NCBI GenBank assembly: GCA_902785695.1
Contig: CACZZQ010000007.1
Coordinates: 1-64,000, forward strand
Length of the DNA: 64,000 nt
Direction: 5' to 3'
DNA from: an uncultured Prevotellaceae bacterium
Lineage (GTDB): Bacteria; Bacteroidota; Bacteroidia; Bacteroidales; Bacteroidaceae
The notes beneath the pieces are model-generated. The model made no database searches. It was not told the DNA's origin and saw nothing but the letters and a program-made list of their open reading frames with translations. This document shows positions 14,252-61,760 of this stretch, one piece after another. The position numbers and the translations under genes were made by a program. How positions within the stretch are numbered: the stretch's first letter is position 1; every line of letters starts with the position of its first letter.

Positions 14252-14337
14252 AAGTGGCACACTTATGAATTTAAATGGCACACTTATGAATTTAAATGGC
14301 ACACTTACGAGTGCTAAATGGCATACTTACGAGTGCT
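14252..14337 (+). repeat. AAATGGC 21-22 bp repeat array, locus A
   Basis: Four tandem units of 21-22 bp starting at 14252, 14273, 14294 and 14316, each beginning AARTGGCAYACTTA, plus a decayed fifth (AAATGACCTGCTT) from 14338. They start immediately after the FadL-type stop codon, between convergent genes. The same core occurs at 34490-34616 and 61662-61760. Confidence 0.85.
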
Positions 14338-14356
14338 AAATGACCTGCTTTTTTAT

Positions 14357-14489
14357 GTGGACACTGGACAGTAAAAATCGGTGATTTTCTAAAAGTCTAC
14401 GCGTACGTCTGTACTTATTATACGCACGTATGCTCAGACGTACGCGAAGAGTTTTCTAAAAAACGCTGATTTTACTGTCCAGTGTCCAC
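14357..14489. repeat. 133-bp inverted-repeat element upstream of the pheS stop
   Basis: Outer arms at 14357-14379 and 14468-14489 (GTGGACACTGGACAG...) are inverted copies, perfect over 22 bp apart from one extra A. A second, inner inverted pair lies at 14400-14411 and 14435-14446 (CGCGTACGTCTG). The right arm is followed by a T-run. It encodes no protein. It could be a miniature transposable element, a bidirectional terminator or a structured RNA; no clear target-site duplication is visible. Confidence 0.75.
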
Positions 14490-14516
14490 TTTTTTTGAAC
14501 AACAGGCTTGCTTTGC

Positions 14517-15575
14517 TTAGTCGGCAGCTTGGAATTCCTCGAGGAAGCGGGTATCGTTCTCAGAGAACATACGGAGGTCGGAGACGCGATACTTCAAGTT
14601 GGTGATGCGCTCCACACCCATACCGAAGGCATAGCCACTGTAGATGCTACTGTCGATGCCGCACTGCTCGAGCACGTTGGGGTCTACCATACCACATCCC
14701 AGAATCTCTACCCAACCGGTGTGCTTGCAGAAGCCGCAGCCCTCGCCGCCACAGATAAAGCACGAGATATCCATCTCGGCACTGGGCTCGGTGAAGGGGA
14801 AGTAAGAGGGGCGCAGACGAATCTTCGTATCTGCACCGAACATCTCCTTTGCAAAGCTCAAAAGCACCTGCTTCAGGTCGGTGAAGCTGACGTTCTTGTC
14901 GATATACAGACCCTCTACCTGATGGAAGAAACAGTGAGCGCGGGCAGTGATGGCTTCATTGCGATACACGCGACCCGGACAGATGACGCGGATAGGAGCG
15001 GTGAGCTTGCCGTCCTCAGTGTGCATCTGCTCCATCACGCGGGCCTGAACACTCGAGGTATGAGAGCGCAGCAGGATGTTTTTCGTCACATCGTTGGGAT
15101 GTTGAGACACGAAGAACGTGTCCTGCATATCGCGGGCAGGATGGTCGGCAGCGAAGTTCATGCGGGTAAACACATGAAGGTCGTCCTCCACTTCAGGACC
15201 GTCGGCCAGCACGAAGCCCATGCGGCTGAAGATATCGATAATCTCGTTGGTCACGATGGTCAACGGATGGCGTGTGCCGAGCTGTATGGGGTAGGGGGTG
15301 CGGGTCAGGTCGATGGCTTCGTCGCCAGCTTCCTGCATGGTGCACTCCTCGCGCAGCTGGTTGATGCGGTCGGTGATGCGCTGTTTCAGTTCGTTAATCT
15401 TTACGCCCACCTCTTTCTTCTGCTCAGCGGGCACGTTGCGGAAGTCGCTCATCAGCTCGTTCAACTCACCTTTTTTACTTAGGTATTTGAGTCGCAGCTG
15501 CTCTACTTCCTCAGCATTCTTGGCCTCCAGCGAGTCAACCTGCTGAAGGAGTTGGTTTATCTTCTCAAGTATCAT
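14517..15575 (-). CDS. pheS: Phenylalanyl-tRNA synthetase alpha subunit
   Basis: A 352-residue class II synthetase subunit that charges tRNA-Phe together with PheT (not in this window). Visible are the N-terminal coiled coil (to about residue 90), motif 2 with CPGRVYRNEAITARAHCFFH, the FTEPSAEMD segment and the final GMGVERI motif 3. A four-Cys knuckle (CFICGGEGCGFC) lies in the catalytic domain, as in many bacterial PheS proteins. A long open frame on the opposite strand is a codon-bias shadow. Confidence 0.95.
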   Translation of the reverse strand: MILEKINQLLQQVDSLEAKNAEEVEQLRLKYLSKKGELNELMSDFRNVPAEQKKEVGVKINELKQRITDRINQLREECTMQEAGDEAIDLTRTPYPIQLGTRHPLTIVTNEIIDIFSRMGFVLADGPEVEDDLHVFTRMNFAADHPARDMQDTFFVSQHPNDVTKNILLRSHTSSVQARVMEQMHTEDGKLTAPIRVICPGRVYRNEAITARAHCFFHQVEGLYIDKNVSFTDLKQVLLSFAKEMFGADTKIRLRPSYFPFTEPSAEMDISCFICGGEGCGFCKHTGWVEILGCGMVDPNVLEQCGIDSSIYSGYAFGMGVERITNLKYRVSDLRMFSENDTRFLEEFQAAD

Positions 15576-15604
15576 TTTTATGTGTAAAATTGCAATTTCG
15601 GGTG

Positions 15605-15612
15605 CAAAGGTA
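15605..15612 (-). promoter_or_regulatory. pheS -7 promoter box
   Basis: The minus strand reads TACCTTTG 30 bp upstream of the pheS start, matching the Bacteroidota -7 box. The region upstream on that strand is the AGTGAAAAG repeat, with no clear TTTG. Confidence 0.6.
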
Positions 15613-15620
15613 ATAAAATA

Positions 15621-15662
15621 AAGTGAAAAGTGAAGAGTGAATAGTGAAAAATTTGCTACCGC
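15621..15662 (+). repeat. AGTGAAAAG...ATTTGCTACCGC repeat element, copy 1
   Basis: Three to four near-copies of AGTGAAAAGTGAA end in ATTTGCTACCGC (15651-15662). The 12-mer recurs in the same orientation and after the same AGTGAAAAG words at 16721-16732 and 20475-20486. This copy lies between divergent pheS and ftsY. Confidence 0.75.
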
Positions 15663-15717
15663 AGTTGATTTTTTTTAAAGAAATGTTATAAGTCTTGCAT
15701 GGGTCGGAAAATCTTTG

Positions 15718-15725
15718 TAATTTTG
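15718..15725 (+). promoter_or_regulatory. ftsY -7 promoter box
   Basis: TAATTTTG, 23 bp before the ATG at 15749, with CTTG at 15694-15697 as a weak -33 element 20 bp upstream. Confidence 0.6.
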
Positions 15726-15748
15726 CAGTTTGAAACACGTATTCGAAT

Positions 15749-16705
15749 ATGGGATTGTTTGATTTTTTTAGTAAGAAAAAGAAAGAAGAGACACTGGACA
15801 AGGGCTTGGAAAAGACCAAGACCTCAGTGTTCGACAAACTGGCACGTGCCATTGCAGGCAAGTCGAAAGTCGATGACGACGTACTGGACAACCTGGAAGA
15901 GGTGCTCATTACCAGCGATGTAGGCGTAGACACCACGCTGAAAATCATTGAGCGAATTGAGGAGCGCGTGGCTCGCGACAAATATGTGTCGACCAGCGAG
16001 CTCAACGGTATTCTGCGCGACGAGATAGCCGCCTTGTTGGCTGAGAACAATACCGAGGATAATGAGAATTGGGACCTGCCCGCCGACCATAAGCCCTACG
16101 TGATACTCGTAGTGGGTGTCAATGGTGTGGGCAAGACTACCACCATAGGTAAGCTGGCTTGGCAGTTTAAACAGGCTGGTAAGAAAGTCTATTTGGGTGC
16201 TGCAGATACGTTCCGTGCCGCTGCCGTAGAGCAGTTGTGTATCTGGGGCGAGCGTGTGGGAGTACCCGTAGTGAAGCAGCAGATGGGCTCTGACCCGGCT
16301 TCTGTGGCTTTCGACACGCTTCAGAGTGCCAAGGCCAACGGTGCCGACGTGGTGATTATCGATACCGCAGGCCGTCTGCATAATAAAGTGGGTCTGATGA
16401 ACGAGTTGAAGAAGATCAAGGACGTGATGAAGAAGGTGCTGCCCGAGGCTCCCGACGAGGTGATGCTGGTACTCGACGGTTCTACTGGCCAGAACGCCTT
16501 TGAGCAGGCCAAGCAGTTTGCAGCTGTGACCCAAATCACATCTCTGGCTATAACGAAACTCGACGGTACAGCCAAGGGCGGTGTAGTCATTGGTATCAGC
16601 GACCAGTTGAAGGTACCCGTGAAGTATATCGGATTGGGTGAAGGTATGGAGGACCTGCAACTCTTCAATAAGAAAGACTTTGTAGACAGCCTTTTTAAAG
16701 GTTAA
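15749..16705 (+). CDS. ftsY: Signal recognition particle receptor FtsY
   Basis: A 318-residue SRP GTPase that docks ribosome-SRP complexes at the membrane. The NG domain is complete: G1 GVNGVGKTTTIGKLA, DTFRAAA, G3 DTAGR, G4 TKLDGTAKGG and the closing GLGEGMEDLQLF. The acidic A domain of E. coli FtsY is missing, as in many non-proteobacterial forms; only a short Lys-rich N-terminus (FFSKKKKEE) precedes the N domain. rimO follows after 28 bp occupied by a repeat element. Confidence 0.95.
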   Translation: MGLFDFFSKKKKEETLDKGLEKTKTSVFDKLARAIAGKSKVDDDVLDNLEEVLITSDVGVDTTLKIIERIEERVARDKYVSTSELNGILRDEIAALLAENNTEDNENWDLPADHKPYVILVVGVNGVGKTTTIGKLAWQFKQAGKKVYLGAADTFRAAAVEQLCIWGERVGVPVVKQQMGSDPASVAFDTLQSAKANGADVVIIDTAGRLHNKVGLMNELKKIKDVMKKVLPEAPDEVMLVLDGSTGQNAFEQAKQFAAVTQITSLAITKLDGTAKGGVVIGISDQLKVPVKYIGLGEGMEDLQLFNKKDFVDSLFKG

Positions 16706-16732
16706 AGTGAAAAGTGAAACATTTGCTACCGC
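16706..16732 (+). repeat. AGTGAAAAG...ATTTGCTACCGC repeat element, copy 2
   Basis: Fills the whole gap between the ftsY stop and the rimO start: AGTGAAAAGTGAAAC followed by ATTTGCTACCGC (16721-16732), one base before the ATG at 16734. It therefore occupies the ribosome-binding position of rimO. Confidence 0.75.
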
Positions 16733-16733
16733 T

Positions 16734-18056
16734 ATGACCATTGACTTTATCTCTTTAGGCTGTTCCAAGAACCTGGTTGACAGCGAACGACTGATGGGAC
16801 TCTTTGAGGCTCATGGCTTTAAGGTGACCCACGATAGCGATGACCCCCAGGGCGAGGTGATTGTCATCAATACCTGTGGCTTCATTGCTGATGCTAAGGA
16901 GGAAAGCATCAATACAATACTGGAGCAGGTGGCACGCAAGAACGAGGGACTCGTAAAGCGCATCTATGTGATGGGCTGTCTGTCCGAGCGCTATCTGGCT
17001 GACTTGGAAGCTGAGATTCCAGAGGTTGATGGATGGTATGGGAAGTTCAATTATAAGGAACTACTGAAAGAGGTAGCCCCCCCTTCGTCCCCCGTGGGGG
17101 ACACTATAGATGCCCCCTCGGGGGCAGTAGGGGGGGCTCGACACTTAACCACTCCCCATCACTACGCCTATACCAAGATCAGCGAGGGCTGCGACCGTCA
17201 TTGCGCCTATTGCGCCATTCCCCTGATTACAGGCCGTCATCAGAGCCGTCCGATGGAGGAAATACTCGATGAGGTGCGCTGGTTGGTGAATCAGGGAACG
17301 GTAGAGTTTCAGATTATTGCGCAGGAACTAACTTATTACGGCATAGACCTTTATGGCGAACAGCGCATAGCAGAACTGATAGAGCAGATGGCTGATATCG
17401 AGGGCGTAAGGTGGATTCGTCTGCACTATGCCTATCCTACGCATTTTCCCTGGCATTTGCTCGACGTGATGCGTGAGAAAAAGAACGTCTGCCGCTATAT
17501 GGACATCGCCCTGCAGCACATCAGCGATCATATGCTCTCAAGGATGCGACGCAACACCACGAAGCAGGAAACGATGGAGCTCATAGAGCGGATGCGTCGT
17601 GAGGTGCCCGGCATCCATATCCGCACCACGCTGATGGTGGGCTTCCCTGGTGAGACCGATGAGGACTTCCAGGAGCTTGTCGATTTTGTGAAGTGGGCAC
17701 GTTTTGATCGTATGGGTGCCTTTGCCTATTCTGAGGAGGAAGGCACCTATTCGGCAGCGCATTATGAGGACGATGTGCCTGAGGACGTCAAACAGCGTCG
17801 TCTGGACAAGTTGATGCGTATTCAGCAGAATATCAGCGCTGAGATAGAGGCTGCAAAAGTAGGTAGCATACTGCCTGTGGTGATTGACCGCACGGAAGGC
17901 AACTATTATATCGGTCGCACGGAGTTCTGCTCACCAGAGGTTGACCCAGAGGTGCTGATTGAGATGACCGATGTGAAGCTGACCATCGGTGGGATGTATC
18001 AAGTGAGAATAACCGACTCCGAGGAGTTTGATCTCTATGGCATCGTGGAAAAATGA
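16734..18056 (+). CDS. rimO: Ribosomal protein S12 methylthiotransferase RimO
   Basis: A 440-residue radical-SAM methylthiotransferase that modifies an Asp of ribosomal protein S12. The N-terminal UPF0004 domain has its three cluster Cys (LGCSKNLVDSE, INTCGF, VMGCLSE). The radical-SAM cluster motif is CDRHCAYC near residue 154, and a TRAM-like C-terminus follows. Start at 16734 is preferred because MTIDFISLGCSKN is the family opening; the frame upstream crosses a repeat. A GC-rich palindromic element is inserted in frame at 17075-17138. It adds about 21 Pro/Gly/Ser/Ala residues in the linker between the UPF0004 and radical-SAM domains, so the enzyme is probably still functional. Confidence 0.93.
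   Translation: MTIDFISLGCSKNLVDSERLMGLFEAHGFKVTHDSDDPQGEVIVINTCGFIADAKEESINTILEQVARKNEGLVKRIYVMGCLSERYLADLEAEIPEVDGWYGKFNYKELLKEVAPPSSPVGDTIDAPSGAVGGARHLTTPHHYAYTKISEGCDRHCAYCAIPLITGRHQSRPMEEILDEVRWLVNQGTVEFQIIAQELTYYGIDLYGEQRIAELIEQMADIEGVRWIRLHYAYPTHFPWHLLDVMREKKNVCRYMDIALQHISDHMLSRMRRNTTKQETMELIERMRREVPGIHIRTTLMVGFPGETDEDFQELVDFVKWARFDRMGAFAYSEEEGTYSAAHYEDDVPEDVKQRRLDKLMRIQQNISAEIEAAKVGSILPVVIDRTEGNYYIGRTEFCSPEVDPEVLIEMTDVKLTIGGMYQVRITDSEEFDLYGIVEK
17075..17138 (+). repeat. GC-rich three-stem palindromic element within rimO
   Basis: Outer arms AGCCCCCCC (17075-17083) and GGGGGGGCT (17130-17138) pair perfectly. Between them lie two further perfect hairpins: GTCCCCC/GGGGGAC (17087-17093 with 17096-17102) and TGCCCCC/GGGGGCA (17111-17117 with 17120-17126). 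The whole folds as a three-way junction of 64 nt. It is read in frame as a Pro/Ser/Gly/Ala linker. Its base composition is very unlike the flanking gene, which marks it as an inserted element. Confidence 0.8.
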
Positions 18057-18068
18057 ATAATACTGAAA

Positions 18069-18356
18069 ATGAACAATAAGGAATTCATTAGCGTTTTAGC
18101 TAACAAAACAAATAAGAGACCAGCAGATACGCAGAAAATGGCTGATGCGTTGATAGCGGTGATGAGCGACTGTTTTCAAGAAGGAGACAGCGTTCAGATG
18201 GCCAATTTCGGCAATTTCGAGGTGAAGAAGAAACTGGAACGCGTGATGATGAACCCTGCCACAGGACAACATATGCTGGTTCCACCAAAATTGGTGCTAT
18301 CATTTAAACCTAATCCTACTTGGAAAGACCAAATCAAGAAAGGAGGGGTTGAATAA
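18069..18356 (+). CDS. HU/IHF-family DNA-binding protein
   Basis: A 95-residue nucleoid protein of the HU/IHF fold. It shows the helical N-terminus (MNNKEFISVLANKTNKRPADT), the GDSVQMANFGNFEVKKK strand region and the DNA-contacting arm around MMNPATGQHMLVPPKLVLSF. Followed 3 bp later by a second HU-domain gene, so the two are probably co-expressed and could form heterodimers. Confidence 0.88.
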   Translation: MNNKEFISVLANKTNKRPADTQKMADALIAVMSDCFQEGDSVQMANFGNFEVKKKLERVMMNPATGQHMLVPPKLVLSFKPNPTWKDQIKKGGVE

Positions 18357-18359
18357 ATT

Positions 18360-19430
18360 ATGGGTAAGATTTATATGAACGATCTGGCCGATTTGCTGGC
18401 GCAGAAAGCGAATATCAGTAAGCGTGAAGCTCAGCAGTTCATCGCGGCTGTCATCGAAACGATACAAGATGGCGTGAATGATGACAAACAAGTGAAGATA
18501 AAAGGACTGGGTACGTTCAAGGTGATTGATATAGATGCCCGCGAGAGCGTGAATGTGAATACTGGAGAACGTGTCACAATAGACAGCCATCAGAAACTTA
18601 CGTTTACACCTGATACTGTAATGAAAGAGTTGGTAAACCGTCCCTTTTCACAGTTTGAAACCGTGGTGCTTAATGAAGGCGTGGAATTTGACGATGACTT
18701 TCTTGTGAAGGAACTGACTATAGAAGCAAACGAAACACTCCCCATCATAGATGAGGAAAAGAATCCTGTTATAGAACCTGCAGTTGAAGTACAAGAAACC
18801 ATTCCCGTCATAGAAGAACAAGAGGAAGAACCTGTTGCAGAAGAACAAGAAGAAGAAGAAAACATGACAGAAGAAGAAAAAAATGTAGAGAAAGAAGAGT
18901 CTGAATCTTATTGGTGGGCATGGCTCCTACTGGCCATTGCAGCCTGCGTTGCCAGTTTTGCAGGTGGTTATCTGTATGGCCGTCACATGGATCGAATGTC
19001 TTTGCTTGAGGAAGAAGGTGTGATTGATACTACTTCCGTTGTTGCACCTGTAAAAGTTGATACGATAAAGAAAGATACATTAGAGGTTGATACTGCTACT
19101 TTGATAAAACAAGACACCACAAAAATCGAAGTGACTACCGCACCTAAGGTAAAGGTTCCCGAGATTAAGGCAGAGGTAGAACCAGAATGGAAGAAATACG
19201 AAAAGCAGGACGCGCGTGTACGTACAGGAGCTTATGCCATCATAGGTACTGAACGTACAGAGAAAGTACGTCAGGGAGACACTACCAAGCGTATAGCCAA
19301 ACGTACGCTGGGTGATGGTATGGAATGTTATATCGAAGTATATAATAATGTGAAGACGGTAGACCTAAAAGAAGGTCAGAACATCAAGATTCCCAAACTG
19401 AAACTGAAGAAACATCTTAAAACGAAATAA
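18360..19430 (+). CDS. HU DNA-binding domain fused to a membrane helix and LysM-like domain
   Basis: A 356-residue chimera. Residues 1-95 are an HU/IHF domain (NDLADLLAQKANISKREAQ, VKIKGLGTFKV, LTFTPDTVMKELV). Residues 120-180 form a very acidic Glu-rich linker. A single membrane helix lies at about 182-203 (WWAWLLLAIAACVASFAGGY), followed by a Thr/Lys/Val-rich region. The C-terminus resembles a LysM fold (VRQGDTTKRIAKRTLGDG ... GQNIKIPKLKL). With an N-in topology the HU part would face DNA and the LysM part peptidoglycan, so a nucleoid-envelope tether is plausible. This function is inference. Similar architectures occur in other Bacteroidota. Confidence 0.75.
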   Translation: MGKIYMNDLADLLAQKANISKREAQQFIAAVIETIQDGVNDDKQVKIKGLGTFKVIDIDARESVNVNTGERVTIDSHQKLTFTPDTVMKELVNRPFSQFETVVLNEGVEFDDDFLVKELTIEANETLPIIDEEKNPVIEPAVEVQETIPVIEEQEEEPVAEEQEEEENMTEEEKNVEKEESESYWWAWLLLAIAACVASFAGGYLYGRHMDRMSLLEEEGVIDTTSVVAPVKVDTIKKDTLEVDTATLIKQDTTKIEVTTAPKVKVPEIKAEVEPEWKKYEKQDARVRTGAYAIIGTERTEKVRQGDTTKRIAKRTLGDGMECYIEVYNNVKTVDLKEGQNIKIPKLKLKKHLKTK

Positions 19431-19448
19431 ACAACATTTTTAAAGAAT

Positions 19449-20444
19449 ATGGCAGAAAATATTGATATCCGCGAACTGAACAGACGGATAGAAGAGCAAA
19501 GCTCGTTTGTAACCAACCTGACAACAGGTATGGACAGAGTGATTGTAGGCCAGAAGCATCTGGTTGACTCCTTGCTGATAGGACTCCTCAGCGATGGCAA
19601 CATCCTGCTGGAGGGTGTACCTGGTCTGGCAAAGACCTTGGCCATCAAGACCCTGTCTCAGTTGATCGACGCAAAATACAGTCGCATACAGTTTACACCA
19701 GACCTGTTGCCTGCCGACGTTACCGGTACAATGATTTATTCACAGAAGGACGAAAAATTCCTGGTGAAGCAAGGCCCCGTATTTGCCAACTTCGTATTGG
19801 CAGATGAAATCAACCGTGCACCGGCCAAGGTGCAGAGTGCATTGCTGGAGGCTATGCAGGAGAAGCAGGTTACCATTGGCAGTGAGACTTTCAATTTGCC
19901 AACTCCGTTCCTCGTAATGGCTACCCAGAACCCCATTGAGCAGGAGGGAACCTATCCGTTGCCAGAAGCACAGATGGACCGTTTCATGCTGAAGGTGGTT
20001 ATCGGTTATCCTACGCTGGAGGAGGAGAAGCAGATTATCCGTGAGAATATCGCAGGCAGCCTCCCCACGGTAACTCCCGTCACCACGAAGGAAGAGATAT
20101 TGAAAGCACGTGAGGTAGTGCGCGAGGTGTACATCGACGAGAAGATTGAACAGTATATCGCTGACATCGTCTTTGCGACGCGCTATCCCGACCGTTATGG
20201 TTTGAAGGATATGAAGGAGATGATTTCGTTTGGTGGCTCACCACGTGCCAGCATCAATCTGGCTAAGGCTTCGCGTGCCTATGCCTTCATCAAGCGTCGC
20301 GGCTATGTGGTACCTGAGGATGTGCGTGCTGTGGCTCACGACGTACTGCGCCACCGTATCGGTCTGACCTACGAGGCCGAGGCATCCAACATCACCAGCG
20401 AGGAGATCGTCAGCAAGATTATCAATAAGGTGGAAGTGCCCTAA
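19449..20444 (+). CDS. MoxR-family AAA+ ATPase of the Bat operon
   Basis: A 331-residue AAA+ protein of the MoxR/RavA group, thought to act as a chaperone for metal-ion insertion or assembly of VWA proteins. Walker A is GVPGLAKT, Walker B LADEINRAPAKVQSALLEAM and sensor 1 ATQNPIEQEGTYPLPEAQ. It heads a run of DUF58, batA, batB, batC and batD/E genes, the usual partners. Confidence 0.92.
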   Translation: MAENIDIRELNRRIEEQSSFVTNLTTGMDRVIVGQKHLVDSLLIGLLSDGNILLEGVPGLAKTLAIKTLSQLIDAKYSRIQFTPDLLPADVTGTMIYSQKDEKFLVKQGPVFANFVLADEINRAPAKVQSALLEAMQEKQVTIGSETFNLPTPFLVMATQNPIEQEGTYPLPEAQMDRFMLKVVIGYPTLEEEKQIIRENIAGSLPTVTPVTTKEEILKAREVVREVYIDEKIEQYIADIVFATRYPDRYGLKDMKEMISFGGSPRASINLAKASRAYAFIKRRGYVVPEDVRAVAHDVLRHRIGLTYEAEASNITSEEIVSKIINKVEVP

Positions 20445-20456
20445 AAGGGTATAACG

Positions 20457-20486
20457 AAGAGTGAAAAGTGAATAATTTGCTACCGC
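20457..20486 (+). repeat. AGTGAAAAG...ATTTGCTACCGC repeat element, copy 3
   Basis: AGAGTGAAAAGTGAATA followed by ATTTGCTACCGC (20475-20486), 4 bp before the DUF58 ATG at 20491. Same orientation and layout as the copy before rimO. Confidence 0.75.
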
Positions 20487-20490
20487 TCTG

Positions 20491-21360
20491 ATGGAAACAA
20501 GTGAAATAATTAAGAAGGTCAGGAAGATTGAGATCAAGGCTCGTGGCCTGAGTTCAAACATCTTCGCGGGTCAGTACCACTCGGCTTTCAAAGGTCGTGG
20601 TATGGCTTTCTCGGAGGTGCGCGAATATCAGTATGGCGACGATGTGCGCGATATCGACTGGAACGTCACTGCACGCTTCAACAAACCCTATGTCAAGGTG
20701 TTTGAGGAGGAGCGTGAGTTGACGGTAATGCTGCTTATCGATGTCAGCGGCTCGCTGGACTTCGGCACCAAGAAGCAATTCAAGCGCGACATGGTGACTG
20801 AGATAGCGGCTACACTGGCATTCTCAGCAATCCAGAACAATGATAAGATTGGCGTGATCTTCTTCTCTGATAAGATAGAAAAATACATCCCACCCAAGAA
20901 AGGACGCAAGCATATCCTGTATATCATCCGCGAGATGCTGGACTTCAACGCAGAGAGCCGTCATACTGATGTGGCACAGGCGATAGAGTTCCTTACTGGC
21001 GTGAGCAAGCGTCGCTGTACGGCATTTATCCTGAGTGACTTCTACGTGCGTCAGGACTTCCTGCAGCAGCTCACCATAGCCAACAACAAACACGACGTGG
21101 TGGCTATACAGGTCTACGACAAGCGTGGCTGTGAACTGCCTAACATCGGACTGATGAAGGTCGTTGACGCAGAAACCGGTTATGAGCAGTATGTGGACAC
21201 AAGCAACAAGAAGGTGCGTGAAACCTACCGCCGCTACTGGATGAAGCGTCAGGCAGACCTGAAGGAGACATTTGCCAAGAGTAATGTGGACAGCGTAAGC
21301 ATTGCTACCGATGAGGACTATGTACGTTCGATGATGGGATTGTTTAAACAACGTGGATAA
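20491..21360 (+). CDS. DUF58 domain protein of the Bat operon
   Basis: A 289-residue cytoplasmic DUF58 protein. The family motif YQYGDDVRDIDWNVTARF is near residue 55, and a VWA-like MIDAS strand (LLIDVSGSLDFG) lies around 80-92. DUF58 proteins accompany MoxR and the Bat proteins throughout Bacteroidota; their biochemical role is not settled. The next gene starts directly after the stop. Confidence 0.9.
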   Translation: METSEIIKKVRKIEIKARGLSSNIFAGQYHSAFKGRGMAFSEVREYQYGDDVRDIDWNVTARFNKPYVKVFEEERELTVMLLIDVSGSLDFGTKKQFKRDMVTEIAATLAFSAIQNNDKIGVIFFSDKIEKYIPPKKGRKHILYIIREMLDFNAESRHTDVAQAIEFLTGVSKRRCTAFILSDFYVRQDFLQQLTIANNKHDVVAIQVYDKRGCELPNIGLMKVVDAETGYEQYVDTSNKKVRETYRRYWMKRQADLKETFAKSNVDSVSIATDEDYVRSMMGLFKQRG

Positions 21361-34489: not shown

Positions 34490-34616
34490 AAGTGCCACAC
34501 TTAACACTCGTAAATGGCTTACTTTTTTTTGTAAATGGCTTACTTTTTTTTGTAAATGGCTTACTTTTTTTTGTAAATGGCTTACTTTTGCATCGTAAAT
34601 GGCCTACTTATTTCAG
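34490..34616 (+). repeat. AAATGGC 21-22 bp repeat array, locus B
   Basis: Six units starting at 34490, 34512, 34533, 34554, 34575 and 34597. Units 2-4 are identical 21-mers (AAATGGCTTAC, a run of eight T, then GT); the flanking units vary in the second half. The last unit contains the TAA stop of the minus-strand AAA-CYTH gene. The array separates that gene from the TonB receptor. Confidence 0.88.
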
Positions 34617-35705
34617 AGCTAAAGTATGGTTATAGTAATTTTGATCACCTGTGATTTCCTTGATGACTTTGAGGAAGGGTGGAAACTTCACTGGCTCACC
34701 CTCGGCAATACCCTTTGTTTCAAGTATCACCAAACCTTCAAGCCTGTCTTTATAGGTGTCTACCTCGAAATACTGGCCTTTCCAGATGAAGCTGCTTCGC
34801 TGTTTGCGAATGGTGTGACGGGTGGGGTCGGCAAGCGAGAGCATCATCTCGTAGAGAGACAGGTTAATCTGACGCTCGGTGACGAGTTCCTCGTCCTCGG
34901 AAGTCTTTTTCTTGGTGGTGTGCACATAGACTTGTTTCTGTCCCCATCCACGTTTACGCAGTCGAATCTCAGTGCCTGGTTCAGCTTGCAGATAGGTTTG
35001 TGTAATTTCACTCAGTATGCTGTCTTCAGGGAATTGACCAGTAACTTCTACAATGTATTTACGCTCCTCAACGATAGGTTGGGGCAGTCCAAGTACATTG
35101 GAAATCTCTTTGATGACACGGTTCATCTTGCAATCGAAATCATCGTGATTATTGATGACTCGCAGGTGTGGATGTCCCGTCCATGCATGAATAACCTTCT
35201 TGTCGAGTCCGCGAGCTATACGAAGTCCTTCCTCGTTCATTTGTTCGTAGCGCTGTGCATTATTGGCTGTAGTATAGTATTGCTCGGCACCGTCGGCAGC
35301 GGAAACGAGATGGAGAACAGCATCATAGCGTTCACGGAGTTCGGGTGTCGACGTTCCTACGGAGCGAGTAATCTGATCCCAAGTTTCTGGTGACATATAA
35401 GCCGAGATGTCCATTGCTCCACGATCGCATACAATGATGCAGGGCTTGTTGCATTCTTGAGCCATTCTCAGGAATTTGTCTTCCAATGCAAGTTGTATTT
35501 CAAGTGTGGCTTTCTCTCCTTCATAGAAGAATCCCTGATTCTTAGTCAAGTAGTTCATGCCTGCCTGAGTAAAGAGCGTAGGTACTTCTGGGATAGTAAA
35601 CACTTTGAAACCGAGGCTCGAAAAATGCTCGATGACACGTACGAGTGCAGTTGTCTTACCTGCACAAGGTCCACCTGTTAGAACTATTTTCTTGATGTCG
35701 TTCAT
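34608..35705 (-). CDS. AAA/P-loop kinase-like domain fused to a CYTH-like domain
   Basis: A 365-residue two-domain protein. The N-terminal half is a P-loop ATPase of the NadR/AAA_28 kind: Walker A GGPCAGKT at residues 11-18 and a CDRGAMDISAYM motif in the Walker B region. From about residue 190 the chain resembles a CYTH/triphosphate tunnel domain: EERKYIVEV at its start, then charged strands (EIRLRKRGWGQKQVYVHTTKK) ending in a basic and acidic tunnel pattern (FEVDTYKDRLEGLVILETKG). Animal TTD14 proteins share this domain pair, bind GTP and phosphatidic acid, and are distant relatives. The bacterial function is unknown. Confidence 0.7.
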   Translation of the reverse strand: MNDIKKIVLTGGPCAGKTTALVRVIEHFSSLGFKVFTIPEVPTLFTQAGMNYLTKNQGFFYEGEKATLEIQLALEDKFLRMAQECNKPCIIVCDRGAMDISAYMSPETWDQITRSVGTSTPELRERYDAVLHLVSAADGAEQYYTTANNAQRYEQMNEEGLRIARGLDKKVIHAWTGHPHLRVINNHDDFDCKMNRVIKEISNVLGLPQPIVEERKYIVEVTGQFPEDSILSEITQTYLQAEPGTEIRLRKRGWGQKQVYVHTTKKKTSEDEELVTERQINLSLYEMMLSLADPTRHTIRKQRSSFIWKGQYFEVDTYKDRLEGLVILETKGIAEGEPVKFPPFLKVIKEITGDQNYYNHTLALK

Positions 35706-55420: not shown

Positions 55421-55446
55421 AAAAGCCAACCATTGGTTGGCTTTTT
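55421..55446 (+). terminator. metY terminator
   Basis: AAAAGCCAACC (55421-55431) and GGTTGGCTTTT (55435-55445) form a hairpin with a 3-nt loop followed by T. Classic intrinsic terminator, usable from both sides. Confidence 0.85.
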
Positions 55447-55463
55447 ATATTACTCTATTAATA

Positions 55464-56291
55464 TTATACATCTTTATAGATGTCTTTCATCTCGCAGGGG
55501 AACCAGAAAGAAGCAACGGTTTTCTTGCCGTTTTCTGTTTCCATAAAGAACTCTCCTCCGAACATATCAACAATAGCCCTACAGATGGCGAGTCCTAATA
55601 TGGAAGACTTGTTGGTATCTTTCAGGGCATCTTCTTTCTGAAGGATTGCATAGATGTCATGATCCGTCTGCTCTGTTTGTTCCATGCCTGTGTAGCAGAT
55701 AGAGACTTTAAGCCCCCTTCGCTCGCAACCATATTTGATGAAAATGTCACCATGCGTAACTTGACGAGCTGCATTGGAAAGAAGATGCATCATAAGTTGA
55801 TGCATGAGATTAGTGTCAAGTATGGCCCTGCAATGAGGTGACAGATCAGAGGTGACGCGTACGGTGACATCTGGCTTGGTATAGTTCAATGCTTCGCGCC
55901 TATAAGATGCCATGAGCTCAATAAGGTTGACCTCTATGAATGTGAAGGTTGGGGTGACACCCTCGAACTTTGACATCTCATGAATCTGAAGTACAAAGTC
56001 AAGTAACTCTTTTGAATATTCGGAGATATCCGTCACCGTTTTCCTCACCATAGCAGGCTGCATGTTTTCGTCTTTTTCATCGAGAATCTTATCGCAAAAA
56101 CCTGTGATGGCATTTAAAGGAGAGCGAAGTGTACGGCTGATATTGTCAATAAACACCGACTTCAACTGTTCACTTTTCTGAGCGCGCTTAACAGCTACAT
56201 TCAAAAGCTTCACATAGTGACGCCGAACTAACAAGAAGCCAATTGCGAAGGCAACAACTAAAAAAACGATAATCAAAGTTACTGCTGTCAT
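55464..56291 (-). CDS. Degenerate (pseudo-) histidine kinase
   Basis: A 275-residue membrane protein with an N-terminal membrane helix (residues about 2-22), then a kinase-like core without any sensor domain. The H-box reads NISRTLRSPLNAI, with Arg53 where the phospho-acceptor His belongs. The D/G1 box reads CYTGMEQT instead of EDTGxGI, and G2 is SILGLAIC. The N-box (LLSNAARQV) is roughly kept. Both autophosphorylation and ATP binding are therefore doubtful. Start 56291 is favoured by the promoter at 56338-56368. It may act as a scaffold or regulator of real kinases such as the pair nearby. Confidence 0.75.
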   Translation of the reverse strand: MTAVTLIIVFLVVAFAIGFLLVRRHYVKLLNVAVKRAQKSEQLKSVFIDNISRTLRSPLNAITGFCDKILDEKDENMQPAMVRKTVTDISEYSKELLDFVLQIHEMSKFEGVTPTFTFIEVNLIELMASYRREALNYTKPDVTVRVTSDLSPHCRAILDTNLMHQLMMHLLSNAARQVTHGDIFIKYGCERRGLKVSICYTGMEQTEQTDHDIYAILQKEDALKDTNKSSILGLAICRAIVDMFGGEFFMETENGKKTVASFWFPCEMKDIYKDV

Positions 56292-56337
56292 AATGAAATA
56301 AATTGTTTTAAACAAGATTATTTTTAATTTTGTAGTG

Positions 56338-56368
56338 CAAAGATACAGCAAAAAAGGAAAATCGCAAA
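56338..56368 (-). promoter_or_regulatory. Promoter of the degenerate kinase gene
   Basis: Minus strand TTTG (56365-56368), 19-bp spacer, TATCTTTG (56338-56345). Excludes the start at 56351, which would lie 5' of the expected transcription start. Confidence 0.75.
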
Positions 56369-56398
56369 GAATATTGAGTTTTTTTCTTCTCTTTTATG

Positions 56399-56406
56399 TA
56401 CCTTTG
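56399..56406 (+). promoter_or_regulatory. -7 box of the GNAT-TIGR04076 gene
   Basis: TACCTTTG 34 bp before the first possible start codon (56441). The -33 element is not clear. Confidence 0.55.
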
Positions 56407-56440
56407 CACTCATAAAGTGTGGAAATGTGGACTATAGGAT

Positions 56441-57346
56441 ATGGAAATGAGCAAGATGAATATTAGAACAGCTAAAGAAGAGGATGCTGAGCGACTGCTC
56501 GGAATCTATACACCTTACATCACTGATACGGCAATCACTTTCGAATACGAGGTGCCGTCCATTGGTGAGTTCCGTCAACGTATCAACAATACGTTGAAAA
56601 AATATCCTTATTTGGTAGCAGAGGATGAGAATGGGAATTTGGTGGGCTATGCCTACGCAGGTGTTTTCAAAGGACGTGCAGCCTACGATTGGGCTGTTGA
56701 GACCTCCATCTATGTGAAACAAAGTGAGGCCGGAAAAGGACTTGGCCGGTTGCTACATGATACACTTCAGAAAGAACTACAGCAAATGGGAATCCTCAAT
56801 ATGTATGCCTGCATCTCTGCCCCACGGGGTACAGATCCTTATCTGACTGATAACAGTATCCAATTCCACAGTCATCTAGGGTATCGGATTGTAGGACGCT
56901 TTGCACAATGCGGCTATAAGTTTAACCGCTGGTATGATATGGTGTGGATGGAAAAACATATTGGTGCGCATACAGAAAAGGTAAAGCCTGTTTCCTTTAT
57001 TGACAATACAAACGAGGACTTTGCAACCAGTCGAGAAGGATCTTTGAATAAAGTTCGAATAACTGCAGTACGCCAGACAATCTATCCTGACCTGATGGAG
57101 AAATACGAAAACCCCATTGAGCATACTTGTGATATGGCTGAGGGGCAGCAATGGATTTCAGTGGATGGGAAATGCCCTAATGGAATGTGTCCATCTGCAT
57201 GGGGGGCTATGCGCGAGTTCGTGGAGTCTTTAGCGAAAGGCGAGGGTGATTTCTACGATGGATGGATGAAAAACCCAATGAGTGCAATGATCAGTTGTAA
57301 CGATGGCTTTCGTCCGTTCAGCTTCTTCATAGAAGTTATGGAGTAA
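56441..57346 (+). CDS. GNAT acetyltransferase fused to a TIGR04076-like domain
   Basis: A 301-residue fusion. Residues 1-185 are a GNAT of the phosphinothricin-acetyltransferase type: MNIRTAKEEDAERLLGIYTPY, GRAAYDWAVETSIYV, the acetyl-CoA loop EAGKGLGRLLH and FHSHLGYRIVGRF. From about residue 203 a second domain begins (VRITAVRQTIYPDLMEKY) with GKCPNGMCPSAWGAMREFVESL and ISCNDGFRPFSFFI. This matches the small TIGR04076 family as I remember it. Both halves usually occur as separate proteins. In-frame ATGs at 56441, 56447 and 56456 are all possible starts. Confidence 0.78.
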   Translation: MEMSKMNIRTAKEEDAERLLGIYTPYITDTAITFEYEVPSIGEFRQRINNTLKKYPYLVAEDENGNLVGYAYAGVFKGRAAYDWAVETSIYVKQSEAGKGLGRLLHDTLQKELQQMGILNMYACISAPRGTDPYLTDNSIQFHSHLGYRIVGRFAQCGYKFNRWYDMVWMEKHIGAHTEKVKPVSFIDNTNEDFATSREGSLNKVRITAVRQTIYPDLMEKYENPIEHTCDMAEGQQWISVDGKCPNGMCPSAWGAMREFVESLAKGEGDFYDGWMKNPMSAMISCNDGFRPFSFFIEVME

Positions 57347-57357
57347 GACATACAAAA

Positions 57358-57396
57358 AAATCGCTAAGAGCATTGTGTTTAGCTACTTAGCGATTT
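57358..57396. terminator. Bidirectional terminator between the GNAT gene and tRNA-Gln
   Basis: AAATCGCTAAG (57358-57368) pairs perfectly with CTTAGCGATTT (57386-57396), 17-nt loop, with A-run on the left and T-rich right side. It serves the GNAT gene on + and tRNA-Gln on minus. Confidence 0.75.
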
Positions 57397-57403
57397 AAAT
57401 CTG

Positions 57404-57474
57404 TTGGGGTACCCGGACTCGAACCAGGAAAGGCAGGACCAGAATCTGCAGTGTTACCATTACACCATACCCCA
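57404..57474 (-). tRNA. tRNA-Gln (anticodon CTG)
   Basis: A 71-nt cloverleaf on the minus strand. Acceptor TGGGGTA/TACCCCA, D arm GTGT...ACAC, anticodon loop TTCTGGT with CTG, T arm CCTGG TTCGAGT CCGGG. The anticodon stem GCAGA/CCTGC has an A-C mismatch at its last pair (31-39). CCA is not encoded. Single gene with its own promoter. Confidence 0.92.
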
Positions 57475-57515
57475 ATTCATTTGCTTCAAGAATCTTGTTT
57501 TCTTGATTGCGGGTG

Positions 57516-57546
57516 CAAAGGTACTGCTTTTTTTTTAATCACCAAA
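57516..57546 (-). promoter_or_regulatory. tRNA-Gln promoter
   Basis: Minus strand TTTG (57543-57546), 19-bp spacer, TACCTTTG (57516-57523). Confidence 0.8.
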
Positions 57547-57618
57547 ACTTTTTGCGGATTTTTTTTAAAAATTCCGTAAAAATGTATCGGTTCGGTTGGC
57601 AGTTTGAATTTTTCTTCA

Positions 57619-57626
57619 TAACTTTG
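57619..57626 (+). promoter_or_regulatory. -7 box of the rsfS-ftsH-cdsA operon
   Basis: TAACTTTG 30 bp before the rsfS ATG at 57657. It lies within the longer open frame and supports the later start. Confidence 0.65.
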
Positions 57627-57656
57627 CATCCAAGATTACACATTATTATATATTTA

Positions 57657-58016
57657 ATGGAACAAACAAAAAAACTAGTAGAAACTATCATAGAGGGAAT
57701 ACAAGAGAAAAAAGGTTCGCAGATTGTGGTAGCCGACCTGAGCGGTATCGACGGCACCATCTGCAAGAATTTCATTATTTGTCAGGGAAACTCGCCGGCC
57801 CAGGTGGAGGCTATCACTGAGAGTGTGGCAGAGATGGCACGCAAGAAGCTGGGCGAGAAGCCTGCTCATGTGGTGGGTTTGGAGAATGCGCAGTGGGTAG
57901 CTATGGACTATACTGACGTGATGGTACACGTCTTTTTACCCGATGTACGTAAGTATTACGACTTGGAGCATCTGTGGAATGATGCCCCGTTGAAGTGTAT
58001 TCCCGACCTTGATTAA
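57657..58016 (+). CDS. rsfS: Ribosomal silencing factor RsfS
   Basis: A 119-residue protein that binds ribosomal protein L14 and blocks subunit joining when growth slows. Family features: ETIIEGIQEKKGSQIVVADLSG, ICKNFIICQGNSPAQVEAI and the closing WVAMDYTDVMVHVFLPDVRKYYDLEHLW (shown in part: VMVHVFLPDVRKYYDLE). The start at 57657 gives the usual family length; the 50-residue upstream extension crosses the promoter. First gene of the operon with ftsH and cdsA. Confidence 0.93.
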   Translation: MEQTKKLVETIIEGIQEKKGSQIVVADLSGIDGTICKNFIICQGNSPAQVEAITESVAEMARKKLGEKPAHVVGLENAQWVAMDYTDVMVHVFLPDVRKYYDLEHLWNDAPLKCIPDLD

Positions 58017-58023
58017 GTGATGA

Positions 58024-58065
58024 GTGTTAAGTGAGAAGTGTTAAGTGAGAAGTGTTAAGTGAGAA
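58024..58065 (+). repeat. Three perfect 14-bp direct repeats before ftsH
   Basis: GTGTTAAGTGAGAA occurs three times head to tail (58024, 58038, 58052), ending 5 bp before the ftsH ATG at 58071. The same words make up the spacer at 12509-12547. Copy number is likely to vary between strains and would change the distance between rsfS and ftsH. Confidence 0.85.
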
Positions 58066-58070
58066 AAAAT

Positions 58071-60101
58071 ATGGAACAGAATCAAAATAATCAGCCGAAA
58101 ATGCCTAAGTTCAACATGAACTGGATATATCTGCTCGTGATAGGTGCACTGGCATTCTTCTATTTCCAGAACGGGACGGATGGACTGCAGGAAAGGGGTG
58201 CAACGAATGGGAAAGCGTCGTACAGCGAATTTAAGAACTTCGTGAAGAATGGCTATGCCGACCGTATCGTTGCCAATAAGACATCAGAGACGCTGAAGAT
58301 GTACGTGAAGCCCGACAGTATTCAGTCGGTGTTTCACCAGACAACAGCCACTACTGGCACTGAGCCTTACCTCAGTGTAGAGTATGGCGAGAACAGTAAG
58401 GTGGAAGAGTTTATTGATTCAGCGCGTGCCAATGGCTACTTCAAAGGAAAGTTCGACTATGAGCATGAGGCGAGCAACGGTATCCTGAGCTTTATCATCA
58501 GTAGTCTGCTGCCTATCTTCTTCCTCGTATTCCTGTGGATGTTCTTCATGCGCCGCATGGGCGGTGGAGGTGGTATGGGTGCCGGCATCTTCAGCGTGGG
58601 CAAGAGCAAGGCCAGGATGTATGAAAAGGGGGGCGAGCTGGGCATCACGTTCAAGGATGTGGCTGGTCAAGCGGGTGCCAAGCAGGAGATACAGGAGATT
58701 GTGGAGTTTCTGAAGAATCCGCAAAAATACACTGACTTGGGTGGTAAGATTCCCAAGGGAGCATTACTTGTAGGTCCTCCAGGAACAGGTAAGACTTTGC
58801 TTGCCAAGGCCGTAGCAGGTGAGGCTGGCGTACCGTTCTTCTCGATGAGCGGTTCCGACTTTGTGGAGATGTTCGTAGGTGTGGGTGCAAGTCGTGTGCG
58901 CGACTTGTTCCAGCAGGCAAAGGCGAAAAGTCCCTGCATCATCTTTATAGACGAGATAGATGCCGTAGGGCGAGCCCGTTCGAAGAACCCCGCTATGGGT
59001 GGTAATGACGAGCGCGAGAACACGCTGAACGCTTTGCTCACCGAGATGGATGGCTTCGGTACAAACAGCGGTGTGATTATCCTGGCAGCTACCAATCGTG
59101 TGGATATGCTTGACTCGGCACTGCTGCGTGCAGGTCGATTCGACCGACAGATACATGTTGACCTGCCTGACCTTAATGAGCGCAAGGAAGTGTTTATGGT
59201 TCACTTGAAGCCCTTGAAACTTGATAATACTGTTGATGTGGACTTCCTGGCTCGTCAGACTCCAGGTTTTTCGGGTGCCGATATCGCCAATGTATGCAAC
59301 GAAGCAGCCCTGATAGCTGCCCGTCACGATAGTCCGAAGGTGGGCAAACAGGATTTCCTGGATGCTGTAGACCGCATCATCGGTGGTTTAGAGAAGAAGA
59401 CGAAGGTGATGACAGAGTCCGAGAAACGCTCGATAGCCATACACGAGGCTGGTCACGCTACCATCTCTTGGTTCACGGAGTTTGCCAATCCGTTGGTAAA
59501 GGTATCGATAGTACCTCGCGGACAGGCACTTGGTGCCGCCTGGTATCTGCCTGAGGAACGCGTGTTGCAGACCAAGGAGGCCATGCTCGACGAGATGTGT
59601 TCTTTGCTTGGCGGCCGTGCTGCCGAGGAACTCTTCGTGGGTCATATTTCTACGGGTGCCATGAACGACCTTGAGCGTACCACCAAGCAGGCCTATGGTA
59701 TGATTGCATACGCCGGCATGGGCGAGCAGTTGCCTAATGTCTGCTATTATAATAATGCGGAATATCAGTTCCAGCGTCCGTATTCTGAGACAACTGCCAA
59801 GCTGATTGACGATGAGGTACTGAAGATGATCAACGAACAGTACGAGCGGGCGAAGCAGATACTAACGGAGCACGCCGAAGGCCACGCCCAGTTGGCTCAG
59901 CTCCTGGTAGAGCGTGAGGTAATCTTTGCCGAGGACGTAGAGCGAATCTTTGGCAAGCGTCCCTGGACTTCTCGTGCTGACGAACTGTTGGAAGCTCAGA
60001 TGCGTGCAGAGGCAGAGAAGATGGTGGAGGAACGTACGAAAGCCCTGGAAAACAAGGCTTTAGAAGATGAAAGTGGAGAGAAGAAAGAGGAAGGAGAATA
60101 G
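58071..60101 (+). CDS. ftsH: ATP-dependent zinc metalloprotease FtsH
   Basis: A 676-residue membrane-bound AAA protease for quality control of membrane and regulatory proteins. Two N-terminal membrane helices (about 18-35 and 142-160) flank a periplasmic domain. The AAA domain has Walker A GPPGTGKT, Walker [13 protein letters not shown] and the SRH arginines. Zinc site HEAGH is followed by the third ligand region. Start ATG 58071 is preferred over a GTG at 58059 that lies within the spacer repeats. The C-terminus ends in a Glu/Lys-rich tail. Confidence 0.95.
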
Positions 60102-60117
60102 AGTAAGTACTAATAAT

Positions 60118-60954
60118 ATGAAGAACTTTATTGTAAGAACCATCACAGGCGTGTTTTTCGTTGCTGCTATTGTGGTCAGTTTCTTGAATCCACTGGCAAT
60201 GGTGTTTCTGTTTGCACTCATCACAGGACTCACTATATGGGAGTTCTGCGGACTGGTAAACGAGCGGCCCTATGTGCAGGTAAACCAGTTTATATCCACC
60301 GTAGCAGGCATGTATCTTTTTCTCGCTATGGCTGGACATTGTAGCGGGCGGACACCCGACACGGTGTTTATACCTTATTTAATAACGATTATCTACCTGC
60401 TTATCGCAGAACTATACCTCAAGGCGAAAGATCCAGTTAACAATTGGGCATATACCATGCTGCCTCAGCTGTATATCGCCCTGCCTTTCTCAATGCTCAA
60501 CGTGCTGGCATTCCCACAGGCAGGCAGCTATTCATTCGTGTATCCCCTGTCGGTTTTTATATTCCTATGGATGAACGACACTGGTGCCTATCTCTGCGGT
60601 TCGCTATTGGGCCGTCATAAGCTCTTTCCAAGGGTATCGCCAGGCAAATCGTGGGAAGGCAGCATCGGAGGCGGCGTGCTGGTGGTTGGTGTAGCAATAT
60701 TGATATGGTGGTTGCTGGGGCAAACCCAACAGCACACAGAGCTGGGTATGTGGCATTGGGCAGGACTTGGACTGACGGTTGTCGTATTCGGCACATGGGG
60801 CGATTTGGTGGAAAGCCTCTTCAAACGTACGCTGGGCATCAAGGACAGTGGCAACATTCTTCCTGGTCACGGAGGTATGCTTGATCGCTTCGATTCGTCG
60901 CTGCTGGCTATTCCAGCTGCTGTGGTTTATCTGTTTACTATCTCGCTGATGTAA
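60118..60954 (+). CDS. cdsA: Phosphatidate cytidylyltransferase
   Basis: A 278-residue integral membrane enzyme making CDP-diacylglycerol for phospholipids. The family signature is present near the C-terminus: GDLVESLFKRTLGIKDSG followed by ILPGHGGMLDRFDS. About seven to eight membrane helices. The start at ATG 60118 (MKNFIVRTITGVFF) follows 16 bp after the ftsH stop; the longer frame overlaps ftsH in another frame and is not credible. Confidence 0.93.
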   Translation: MKNFIVRTITGVFFVAAIVVSFLNPLAMVFLFALITGLTIWEFCGLVNERPYVQVNQFISTVAGMYLFLAMAGHCSGRTPDTVFIPYLITIIYLLIAELYLKAKDPVNNWAYTMLPQLYIALPFSMLNVLAFPQAGSYSFVYPLSVFIFLWMNDTGAYLCGSLLGRHKLFPRVSPGKSWEGSIGGGVLVVGVAILIWWLLGQTQQHTELGMWHWAGLGLTVVVFGTWGDLVESLFKRTLGIKDSGNILPGHGGMLDRFDSSLLAIPAAVVYLFTISLM

Positions 60955-61039
60955 AAAAGTCGGTAAAAAACTTGCATATATCAAAAAAAACTTGTTATTT
61001 TGCATATAGTTTACTAACATTAACTTAAAAACAAGTATT

Positions 61040-61648
61040 ATGAAGAAGTTTTTAGTGGCTATCGTAGCCGTGCTGTTCGCAGCACCTTCGTTCGCTCAGT
61101 ACAGCAGCGGCGGTTTTTCTTTGAGTGAGAGCACTGTGTATTATGGTGTACGCATGGGTTTGAATTTCGCAACTGTCACTGGTGATCTCCCTTCTGATGT
61201 TAAGGGAGCCAAGACTGGATTCAATTTCGGTGGTGTATTAGGTTTGCGTGTTAGCCAGACAACTCCTATTTTCTTGGAGAGTGGTCTGTACTATACAGAG
61301 CGCGGCTGTAAGAACGGAGACAACAAGATCGGCCTCACCTATTTTGAAATTCCCTTACTGATCAAATATGGCATTCAGGCTACTGATGAGATTGCTGTCC
61401 TTCCTTATTTAGGTCCAGCCTTTGGATTTGGTATTGCCGGAAAGGTTAAGCCTGGCAATGACAGTTCGTTCAGTAGTGAAGGTGGTTTCAACCGTCCTGA
61501 TGTAGGTTTCAAGATTGGTTGTGGTGCCGAATATAATATGCTCTACTTGGAAGCAGGTTATCAGATAGGTATGGCAAACATTGCACGTGACGATAACAAG
61601 ACTGCTCATGGTAATGCGTTCTTCATCAACTTCGGTGTGAACTTCTAA
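61040..61648 (+). CDS. Outer-membrane beta-barrel protein (PorT-like)
   Basis: A 202-residue exported protein: signal peptide ending AAPSFAQ (residue 20), then eight or so amphipathic strands (VRMGLNFATVTG, FNFGGVLGLRVSQTTPIFLESGLYYTERG) and a final FFINFGVNF strand. It fits the outer-membrane beta-barrel family with PorT-like sequences found in large numbers in Bacteroidota. Function not predictable. The spacing to cdsA (85 bp) with a TTATTTTG box at 60995-61002 suggests its own promoter. Confidence 0.75.
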   Translation: MKKFLVAIVAVLFAAPSFAQYSSGGFSLSESTVYYGVRMGLNFATVTGDLPSDVKGAKTGFNFGGVLGLRVSQTTPIFLESGLYYTERGCKNGDNKIGLTYFEIPLLIKYGIQATDEIAVLPYLGPAFGFGIAGKVKPGNDSSFSSEGGFNRPDVGFKIGCGAEYNMLYLEAGYQIGMANIARDDNKTAHGNAFFINFGVNF

Positions 61649-61661
61649 ATCATTCAATAGT

Positions 61662-61718
61662 TTATTATACGTAAACAGGCCATTTACCGATTGTAAATGG
61701 CCTGTTTACGTATAATAA
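61662..61718. repeat. Perfect 26-bp inverted repeat, AAATGGC locus C
   Basis: Arms 61662-61687 and 61693-61718 are exact inverted copies around a 5-nt loop (CGATT). The inner part of each arm is the AAATGGC repeat core (GTAAATGGCCTGTTTAC). It begins 13 bp after the stop of the barrel gene, between convergent genes. It may act as a terminator, but no T-run follows on the + side. Confidence 0.85.
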
Positions 61719-61760
61719 GTGGCATACTTAGATATCGTAAATGGCATACTTATATTTTAC
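61717..61760 (+). repeat. AAATGGC 22-bp repeat units, locus C
   Basis: Two units, AAGTGGCATACTTA... at 61717-61738 and AAATGGCATACTTA... at 61739-61760, continue directly from the right arm of the hairpin. The second overlaps the TAA stop of dacB on the minus strand. Same family as arrays at 14.25 and 34.5 kb. Confidence 0.82.

What the first reader, a model, noticed from the sequence alone, without database searches (positions are those of the whole stretch)
14252..61760. A family of 21-22 bp intergenic repeats (AAATGGCnnACTTA) at three distant loci, all against stop codons
Seen in sequence: arrays at 14252-14337 (four units plus a decayed one), 34490-34616 (six units, three identical) and 61662-61760 (two units plus a 26-bp perfect hairpin built from the same core). 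The first half of each unit is conserved, the second half varies. Unit length is two turns of B-DNA, so the conserved cores face the same side of the helix. Each array lies directly beside a stop codon: it begins 3 bp after the FadL-type gene, or overlaps the stop of the AAA-CYTH and dacB genes. Inference: either binding sites for an array-binding protein or a dispersed non-autonomous element that targets gene ends, or a termination/insulation device. I know of no described family with this core, but cannot search.
Basis: partly seen in the sequence, partly recalled or inferred. Interest (0 to 1): 0.85.

Follow-up and report, generated by a model that had tools for sequence, protein, structure and literature searches.

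The report
Two-turn DNA repeats with changing dialects
The three repeats belong to a class of tandem DNA repeats spaced 21-22 base pairs, two turns of the helix, found in sampled stretches of all eight genomes examined from this genus (apparently Prevotella); at two genes their spacing and position are shared by many species while the letters differ, and they likely serve as docking rows for a DNA-binding protein that is still unknown.

Summary
AARTGGCNNACTT occurs 133 times in the host genome against 5 for the reversed control, in 29 arrays of 2-7 units; 94 of 94 spacings are 21 or 22 bp. This dialect is patchy: 10 of 398 same-genus genomes, own included.

It is one dialect of a wider class. 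In stretches of 8 same-genus genomes, 33 of 81 non-coding tandem arrays have period 22, against 0 of 19 in 14 genomes of other families. Core letters differ between species. Two host arrays lie in frame inside genes (U32 peptidase, isochorismate synthase-like). At the same two places other species carry 22-bp arrays with other letters; 8 of 15 and 7 of 9 share one register.

Gene-end targeting and termination are not supported: 8 arrays between convergent, 12 tandem, 4 divergent genes, 2 inside genes. I infer docking platforms for an unidentified DNA-binding protein. Neutral concerted evolution is a close rival: of 7 genomes with arrays at both genes, only the host shows the same core at both. 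Closest described kind: STAR of Staphylococcus, with another core and period.

The parts
14252..14337 (+). Array 1: four exact units (starts 14252, 14273, 14294, 14316; spacing 21, 21, 22); a decayed fifth unit follows from 14338
14357..14489 (.). Long inverted repeat on the 3' side of array 1 (arms 14357-14411 and 14435-14489, 55 nt, 80% complementary); one of 10 hairpins in the genome with the CGTACGTCTG/CAGACGTACG core, 9 of which lie beside an array
34490..34616 (+). Array 2: six units (34490, 34512, 34533, 34554, 34575, 34597), three identical 21-mers; the last unit overlaps the stop codon of the ORF 34608-35705(-)
61662..61718 (.). Perfect inverted repeat (26-nt arms, 5-nt loop) holding two head-to-head variant units AAATGGCCTGTTTA
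61717..61760 (+). Array 3: two exact units (61717, 61739); the spacer of the second overlaps the stop codon of the ORF 61757-63013(-)

Best explanation
The arrays are tandem rows of 21-22-bp units that likely act as docking platforms for a sequence-specific, probably dimeric DNA-binding protein, predicted to sit on one face of the helix every two turns. Shown by the calls: a fixed period; a degenerate unit at many 3' edges; spacers alike within an array; dispersal of one core over about 30 loci beside varied genes; other cores in other species; and, at two genes, a register shared by species whose array letters differ. Inferred: geometry (period, often a dyad) is what selection keeps; each dialect has its own reader protein; slippage or gene conversion spreads a new core through an array from the inside and leaves older units at the edges. 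Unknown: which protein, and what the bound array does (chromosome organisation, segregation and recombination are all open).
For: 133 core copies against 5 control; 29 arrays, 94 of 94 spacings 21 or 22 bp. Period 22 in 33 of 81 non-coding tandem arrays of 8 same-genus samples, 0 of 19 in 14 genomes of other families. Dialects dispersed within a genome and rare or absent in others: 89 pairs in the host, 21 pairs in G035 and 0 in 39 others, GAAACANNTTGTTT in 5 of 19 genomes with 8 pairs at 5 places in G432. Same place and register with other letters: MenF 8 of 15, U32 7 of 9; the host MenF linker is 0.24-0.29 identical to three equally long linkers in the same phase. 22 is not a multiple of 3, so inside a gene successive units are read in different frames: the DNA row, not the peptide, is what repeats. 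No Pfam family recurs among neighbours: at most 2 of 56.
Against: No protein identified and no binding tested. Of 7 genomes with best lag 22 at both genes, only the host shows the same core at both by eye; G422, G423, G425, G427, G429 and G432 do not, so one reader per genome is excluded and several dialects must coexist. Dyad symmetry is not general: 7 of 42 consensus units at p<=0.05, and the two window consensuses are not symmetric by that test. Spacers between arrays are more alike than composition predicts (0.56 against 0.32), which fits copying between loci as well. The same linkers in other species hold heptad hairpins or plain sequence.
Confidence: 0.4

Rival explanations
1. Neutral or selfish minisatellites: replication slippage and template switching copy 22-bp units and correct near-palindromes in place, so arrays renew their letters without any reader protein.
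For: Spacers homogenised within arrays; degenerate edge units (17 of 29 at the 3' edge, 9 of 29 at the 5' edge); whole-unit length change of 14 residues, two 21-bp units, between the host U32 protein and its nearest homologue; different dialects at two genes of one genome.
Against: Does not by itself explain one core at about 30 unlinked places, nor why 22 bp stands out in this genus and not in 14 other-family genomes.
Confidence: 0.35
2. Non-autonomous mobile repeats moved by a transposase in trans; each dialect is one family, and the two gene linkers are favoured landing sites.
For: Patchy distribution: 10 of 398 genomes. In the host 9 of 10 copies of one hairpin family lie beside an array. 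Unrelated hairpin repeats occupy the same linkers in other species.
Against: A register shared across different letters would need base-exact insertion each time. No transposase family recurs beside arrays. The IS21 remnant carries no core. Y1 transposase in 5 of 10 array-bearing genomes, host core at 0 of its 10 loci. No filled and empty site pair was found.
Confidence: 0.15
3. Transcription termination or insulation device at gene ends.
For: A stop codon within 15 bp of 8 of 30 arrays; 8 of 24 between convergent genes.
Against: 4 of 24 between divergent genes, 2 of 30 inside reading frames, array strand not tied to gene strand.
Confidence: 0.06

Closest known systems
STAR elements of Staphylococcus (PMC3532100: abstract, outline and 12 passages seen)
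   Same: Dispersed direct-repeat rows, 1-7 units per locus at the loci described, conserved core with locus-specific spacers that are alike within a locus, a distinct last spacer, uneven species distribution, function unknown
   Different: Its core is 14 bp with spacers of 40 bp or more (here 21-22 bp in all); the paper reports locations that differ between species, here two places are shared with other letters; here 2 of 30 arrays lie inside genes
REP/BIME repeats with RAYT (Y1) transposases
   Same: Short, partly palindromic dispersed repeats, often outside genes
   Different: Y1 transposase in only 5 of 10 array-bearing genomes and no host core beside it; strict two-turn tandem period
Ends of IS21-type and Tn7-like elements (recalled)
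   Same: Tandem sites of about 20-22 bp in one orientation (recalled)
   Different: No transposase family among neighbours; single IS21 remnant without the core
Rickettsia palindromic elements (recalled; search listing only)
   Same: Repeats accommodated in frame inside genes
   Different: Tandem rows rather than single palindromes; most arrays here lie outside genes
Plasmid iterons and parC centromere rows (recalled)
   Same: Tandem protein-binding units near two helical turns
   Different: About 30 chromosomal rows beside varied genes; no replication or partition family recurs next to them
TAACTGA heptad repeats (PMC4679880: abstract and outline seen)
   Same: Abundant short intergenic direct repeats, reported also in some Bacteroidetes
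   Different: Period 7 and one fixed heptamer

Membership tests
STAR elements | 14-bp core T(G/A/T)TGTTG(G/T)GGCCC(C/A) with spacers of at least 40 bp | tested here: not met
   Core AARTGGCNNACTT; 94 of 94 spacings 21 or 22 bp (definition)
STAR elements | Locus-specific spacers alike within a locus | tested here: met
   0.88 within, 0.56 between arrays
REP/BIME | RAYT (Y1) transposase linked to the repeats | tested here: not met
   Y1 in 5 of 10 genomes; host core at 0 of 10 Y1 loci. In G016, 2 of 3 Y1 loci have 22-bp arrays nearby
REP/BIME | Single palindromic unit of 20-40 bp | tested here: inconclusive
   7 of 42 consensus units symmetric at p<=0.05
IS21-type transposon ends | Repeats flank a transposase gene | tested here: not met
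   One below-cut-off IS21 match in the host, no core within its locus; no transposase family among the 25 families shown for 56 neighbours
Non-autonomous mobile element (MITE) | Filled and empty sites with target duplication | not tested
   No second strain of the host species was available
Protein-binding array (iteron or centromere type) | Tandem units at a whole number of helical turns | tested here: met
   21-22 bp
Protein-binding array (iteron or centromere type) | A cognate protein that binds the units | not testable with these tools
   Needs binding assays
Intrinsic terminator | Lies 3' of genes in a consistent strand | tested here: not met
   8 convergent, 12 tandem, 4 divergent, 2 in genes

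The most novel reading that the evidence does not exclude
The genus carries an inherited system of two-turn DNA rows in which geometry, not sequence, is the lasting signal: positions and helical register persist across species while the letters of the units are rewritten in dialects, each read by its own fast-evolving DNA-binding protein.
Probability: 0.28. Interest if true: 0.9.

Novelty: new variant of a known kind. Interest (0 to 1): 0.7.

Why it matters
The function of dispersed repeat rows such as STAR is still stated as unknown. Here a fixed two-turn geometry can be told apart from sequence: it recurs across species and sits in a shared register inside two enzymes while the letters differ. 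That makes the question testable: either an unknown kind of protein reads these rows, or replication itself writes 22-bp arrays in this genus.

Tried and rejected
Ends of IS21-type elements (my first idea, because such ends hold repeated sites; recalled): one IS21 remnant, no core in its locus. REP/RAYT: Y1 transposase in 5 of 10 genomes, host core at 0 of 10 Y1 loci. A link to VapE cassettes, suspected by eye: VapE-like domain in 1 of 56 neighbours. Gene-end targeting: mixed contexts. Phage origin: 0, 0, 1 and 0 contigs for four specific patterns in the viral collection; the one hit, L394, encodes phage-like proteins with no evident link to this genus. General dyad symmetry of 22-bp units: only partly borne out. 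Paper searches by words and by core letters (10 papers on other subjects by title, not opened) found no description of these arrays in the held library; that is no proof that none is in print.

Full report
Observation. The three arrays are as described; small corrections are under the observation check. In the host genome (G000: 2.48 Mb, 61 contigs, 78% complete) the core AARTGGCNNACTT occurs 133 times against 5 for the reversed control, and a tandem pattern finds 89 pairs against 0 control.

Anatomy. The places listed were fetched. I left seven loci out of the script as lacking a same-strand pair of strict units (L069, L072, L074, L075, L076, L085, L086); three more that I gave it hold one strict unit only (L080, L083, L087). 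It found 29 arrays of 2-7 units, 123 units in all, decayed units between strict ones included; 94 of 94 spacings are 21 (53) or 22 bp (41). The core AAGT-GGCNN-ACTT is an imperfect dyad. Spacers are 0.88 identical within and 0.56 between arrays, against 0.32 by composition. One step beyond the 3' edge 17 of 29 arrays hold a degenerate unit, five of them with CATAGTT; beyond the 5' edge 9 of 29; null fraction 0.025. By eye, several arrays have 22-bp outer and 21-bp inner units.

Context. Of 30 arrays (the 29 and one inverted pair in L081), 24 have called neighbours on both sides: 8 lie between convergent, 12 between tandem and 4 between divergent genes; 2 lie inside genes; 4 have one called neighbour. 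A stop lies within 15 bp of 8 of 30 (my count; gene calls come from a simple codon model). I gave 56 of 60 neighbour ORFs to a Pfam scan: 117 families, none matched by more than two members.

In-gene copies. C5:33163-33239 lies in frame in a U32 peptidase and C6:50926-50982 in a chorismate-binding enzyme, here called MenF. Against its nearest homologue (603 aa, 86% identity) the host U32 protein (617 aa) shows one 14-residue gap in the linker, two 21-bp units. Other homologues carry different repeat-like peptides there.

Distribution. The host dialect occurs in 10 of 398 same-genus genomes, own included, most of them with few pairs; the reversed control also hits three genomes (G035 eight times, G190 and G257 once each). 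AAGGTGCCGCCT gives 21 pairs in G035 and none in 39 other genomes. GAAACANNTTGTTT gives pairs in 5 of 19 genomes, none in the host.

A class with one period. In 1.18 Mb from 8 same-genus genomes (118 kb non-coding), Tandem Repeats Finder gives 81 non-coding arrays of period 10 or more: 33 at 22, 9 at 44, 6 at 21, no other period above 7. In 0.70 Mb from 14 genomes of other families of the order (67 kb non-coding) it gives 19: 0 at 22, 2 at 21. All 8 genus samples contribute 2 to 12 arrays at 21-22. Four of them (host, G035, G289, G196) were chosen knowing that they hold arrays; the four chosen for contiguity gave 5, 4, 12 and 2.

Register without letters. MenF linkers came from the best 80 of 204 loci of the genome collection and the host: 15 of 81 have 22 as best lag, and 8 of these 15 share one dyad phase modulo 11. 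U32 linkers were measured in 57 of 58 loci: 9 have best lag 22, and 7 of 9 share one phase. Chance bounds are 1.9e-6 and 2.9e-7 if species are taken as independent; they are not, and shared descent of the row is the likely cause, which is the point. The host MenF linker is 0.24-0.29 identical to three others of equal length and phase; six U32 linkers of 102 nt in phase are 0.33-0.75 identical. L338 and L339 are one genome seen twice (G431 and G196); neither is in the phase count.

Against a simple reading. Seven genomes have best lag 22 at both genes: only the host shows one core at both by eye; G422, G423, G425, G427, G429 and G432 do not. So several dialects coexist in a genome. Units are symmetric more often than expected (7 of 42 at p<=0.05) but not in general, and the window consensuses are not. 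Other species hold heptad hairpins or plain sequence in the same linkers. No binding protein is known.

Mechanism. I infer that geometry is kept because a dimeric protein docks on one face every two turns, and that cores turn over by homogenisation inside the array while edges lag; the host U32 row still has GTTTCC...AAAAC at one edge, like some relatives (inference). A neutral writing process is nearly as likely and needs no protein, but leaves the shared core at unlinked loci unexplained.

Known kinds. STAR elements are closest in anatomy but fail on core and period. REP/RAYT and IS21-type ends were tested and not met. Papers: abstract, outline and 12 passages of PMC3532100; abstract and outline of PMC4679880; all others as search listings. 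Iterons, parC rows, Tn7-like ends and Rickettsia elements are recalled.

Noticed in passing
window 14357-14489; L059, L096, L018, L022, L025, L062, L064, L071, L074: Hairpin family with constant core CGTACGTCTG/CAGACGTACG (10 copies): 9 of 10 lie 66-92 bp from an array unit, 8 of the 9 on its 3' side. Arm letters differ by locus (GTAACAGAT, TTGCCACAT or GTGGACACTGGACAGT type) but pair with each other: outer 38 nt 0.76 complementary within a locus, 0.64 identical between loci.
   Followed up: partly
L069, L073, L079, L081: A second MITE-like repeat with AATGCTCCGC...GCGGAGCATT lies beside arrays at these places.
   Followed up: partly
window 4887, 7893, 15620, 29490, 58013, 62998: Six tandem repeats with a period-7 row; heptad-armed hairpins also fill MenF and U32 linkers in other species.
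   Followed up: no
G000 starts of contigs C1, C30, C32; ends of C5, C23, C40: Array units lie within about 150 bp of these six contig ends; C1 and C32 begin with sequence sharing ACCCTGCAAAATGAGCTA, perhaps ends of one insertion sequence.
   Followed up: no
L236, L239 (G016): 22-bp arrays lie near 2 of 3 Y1 transposase matches of this genome.
   Followed up: no
L081 1070-1105; window 61672-61708: Head-to-head pairs of array units that form short palindromes.
   Followed up: no
L394 14446-14479: One viral contig, apparently of an unrelated host, holds a short row of units like the host dialect.
   Followed up: partly
L106, L114, L119 (G064): Arrays here lie between long inverted flanks rich in CACTGAATCCTA-type direct repeats, seen by eye.
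   Followed up: no
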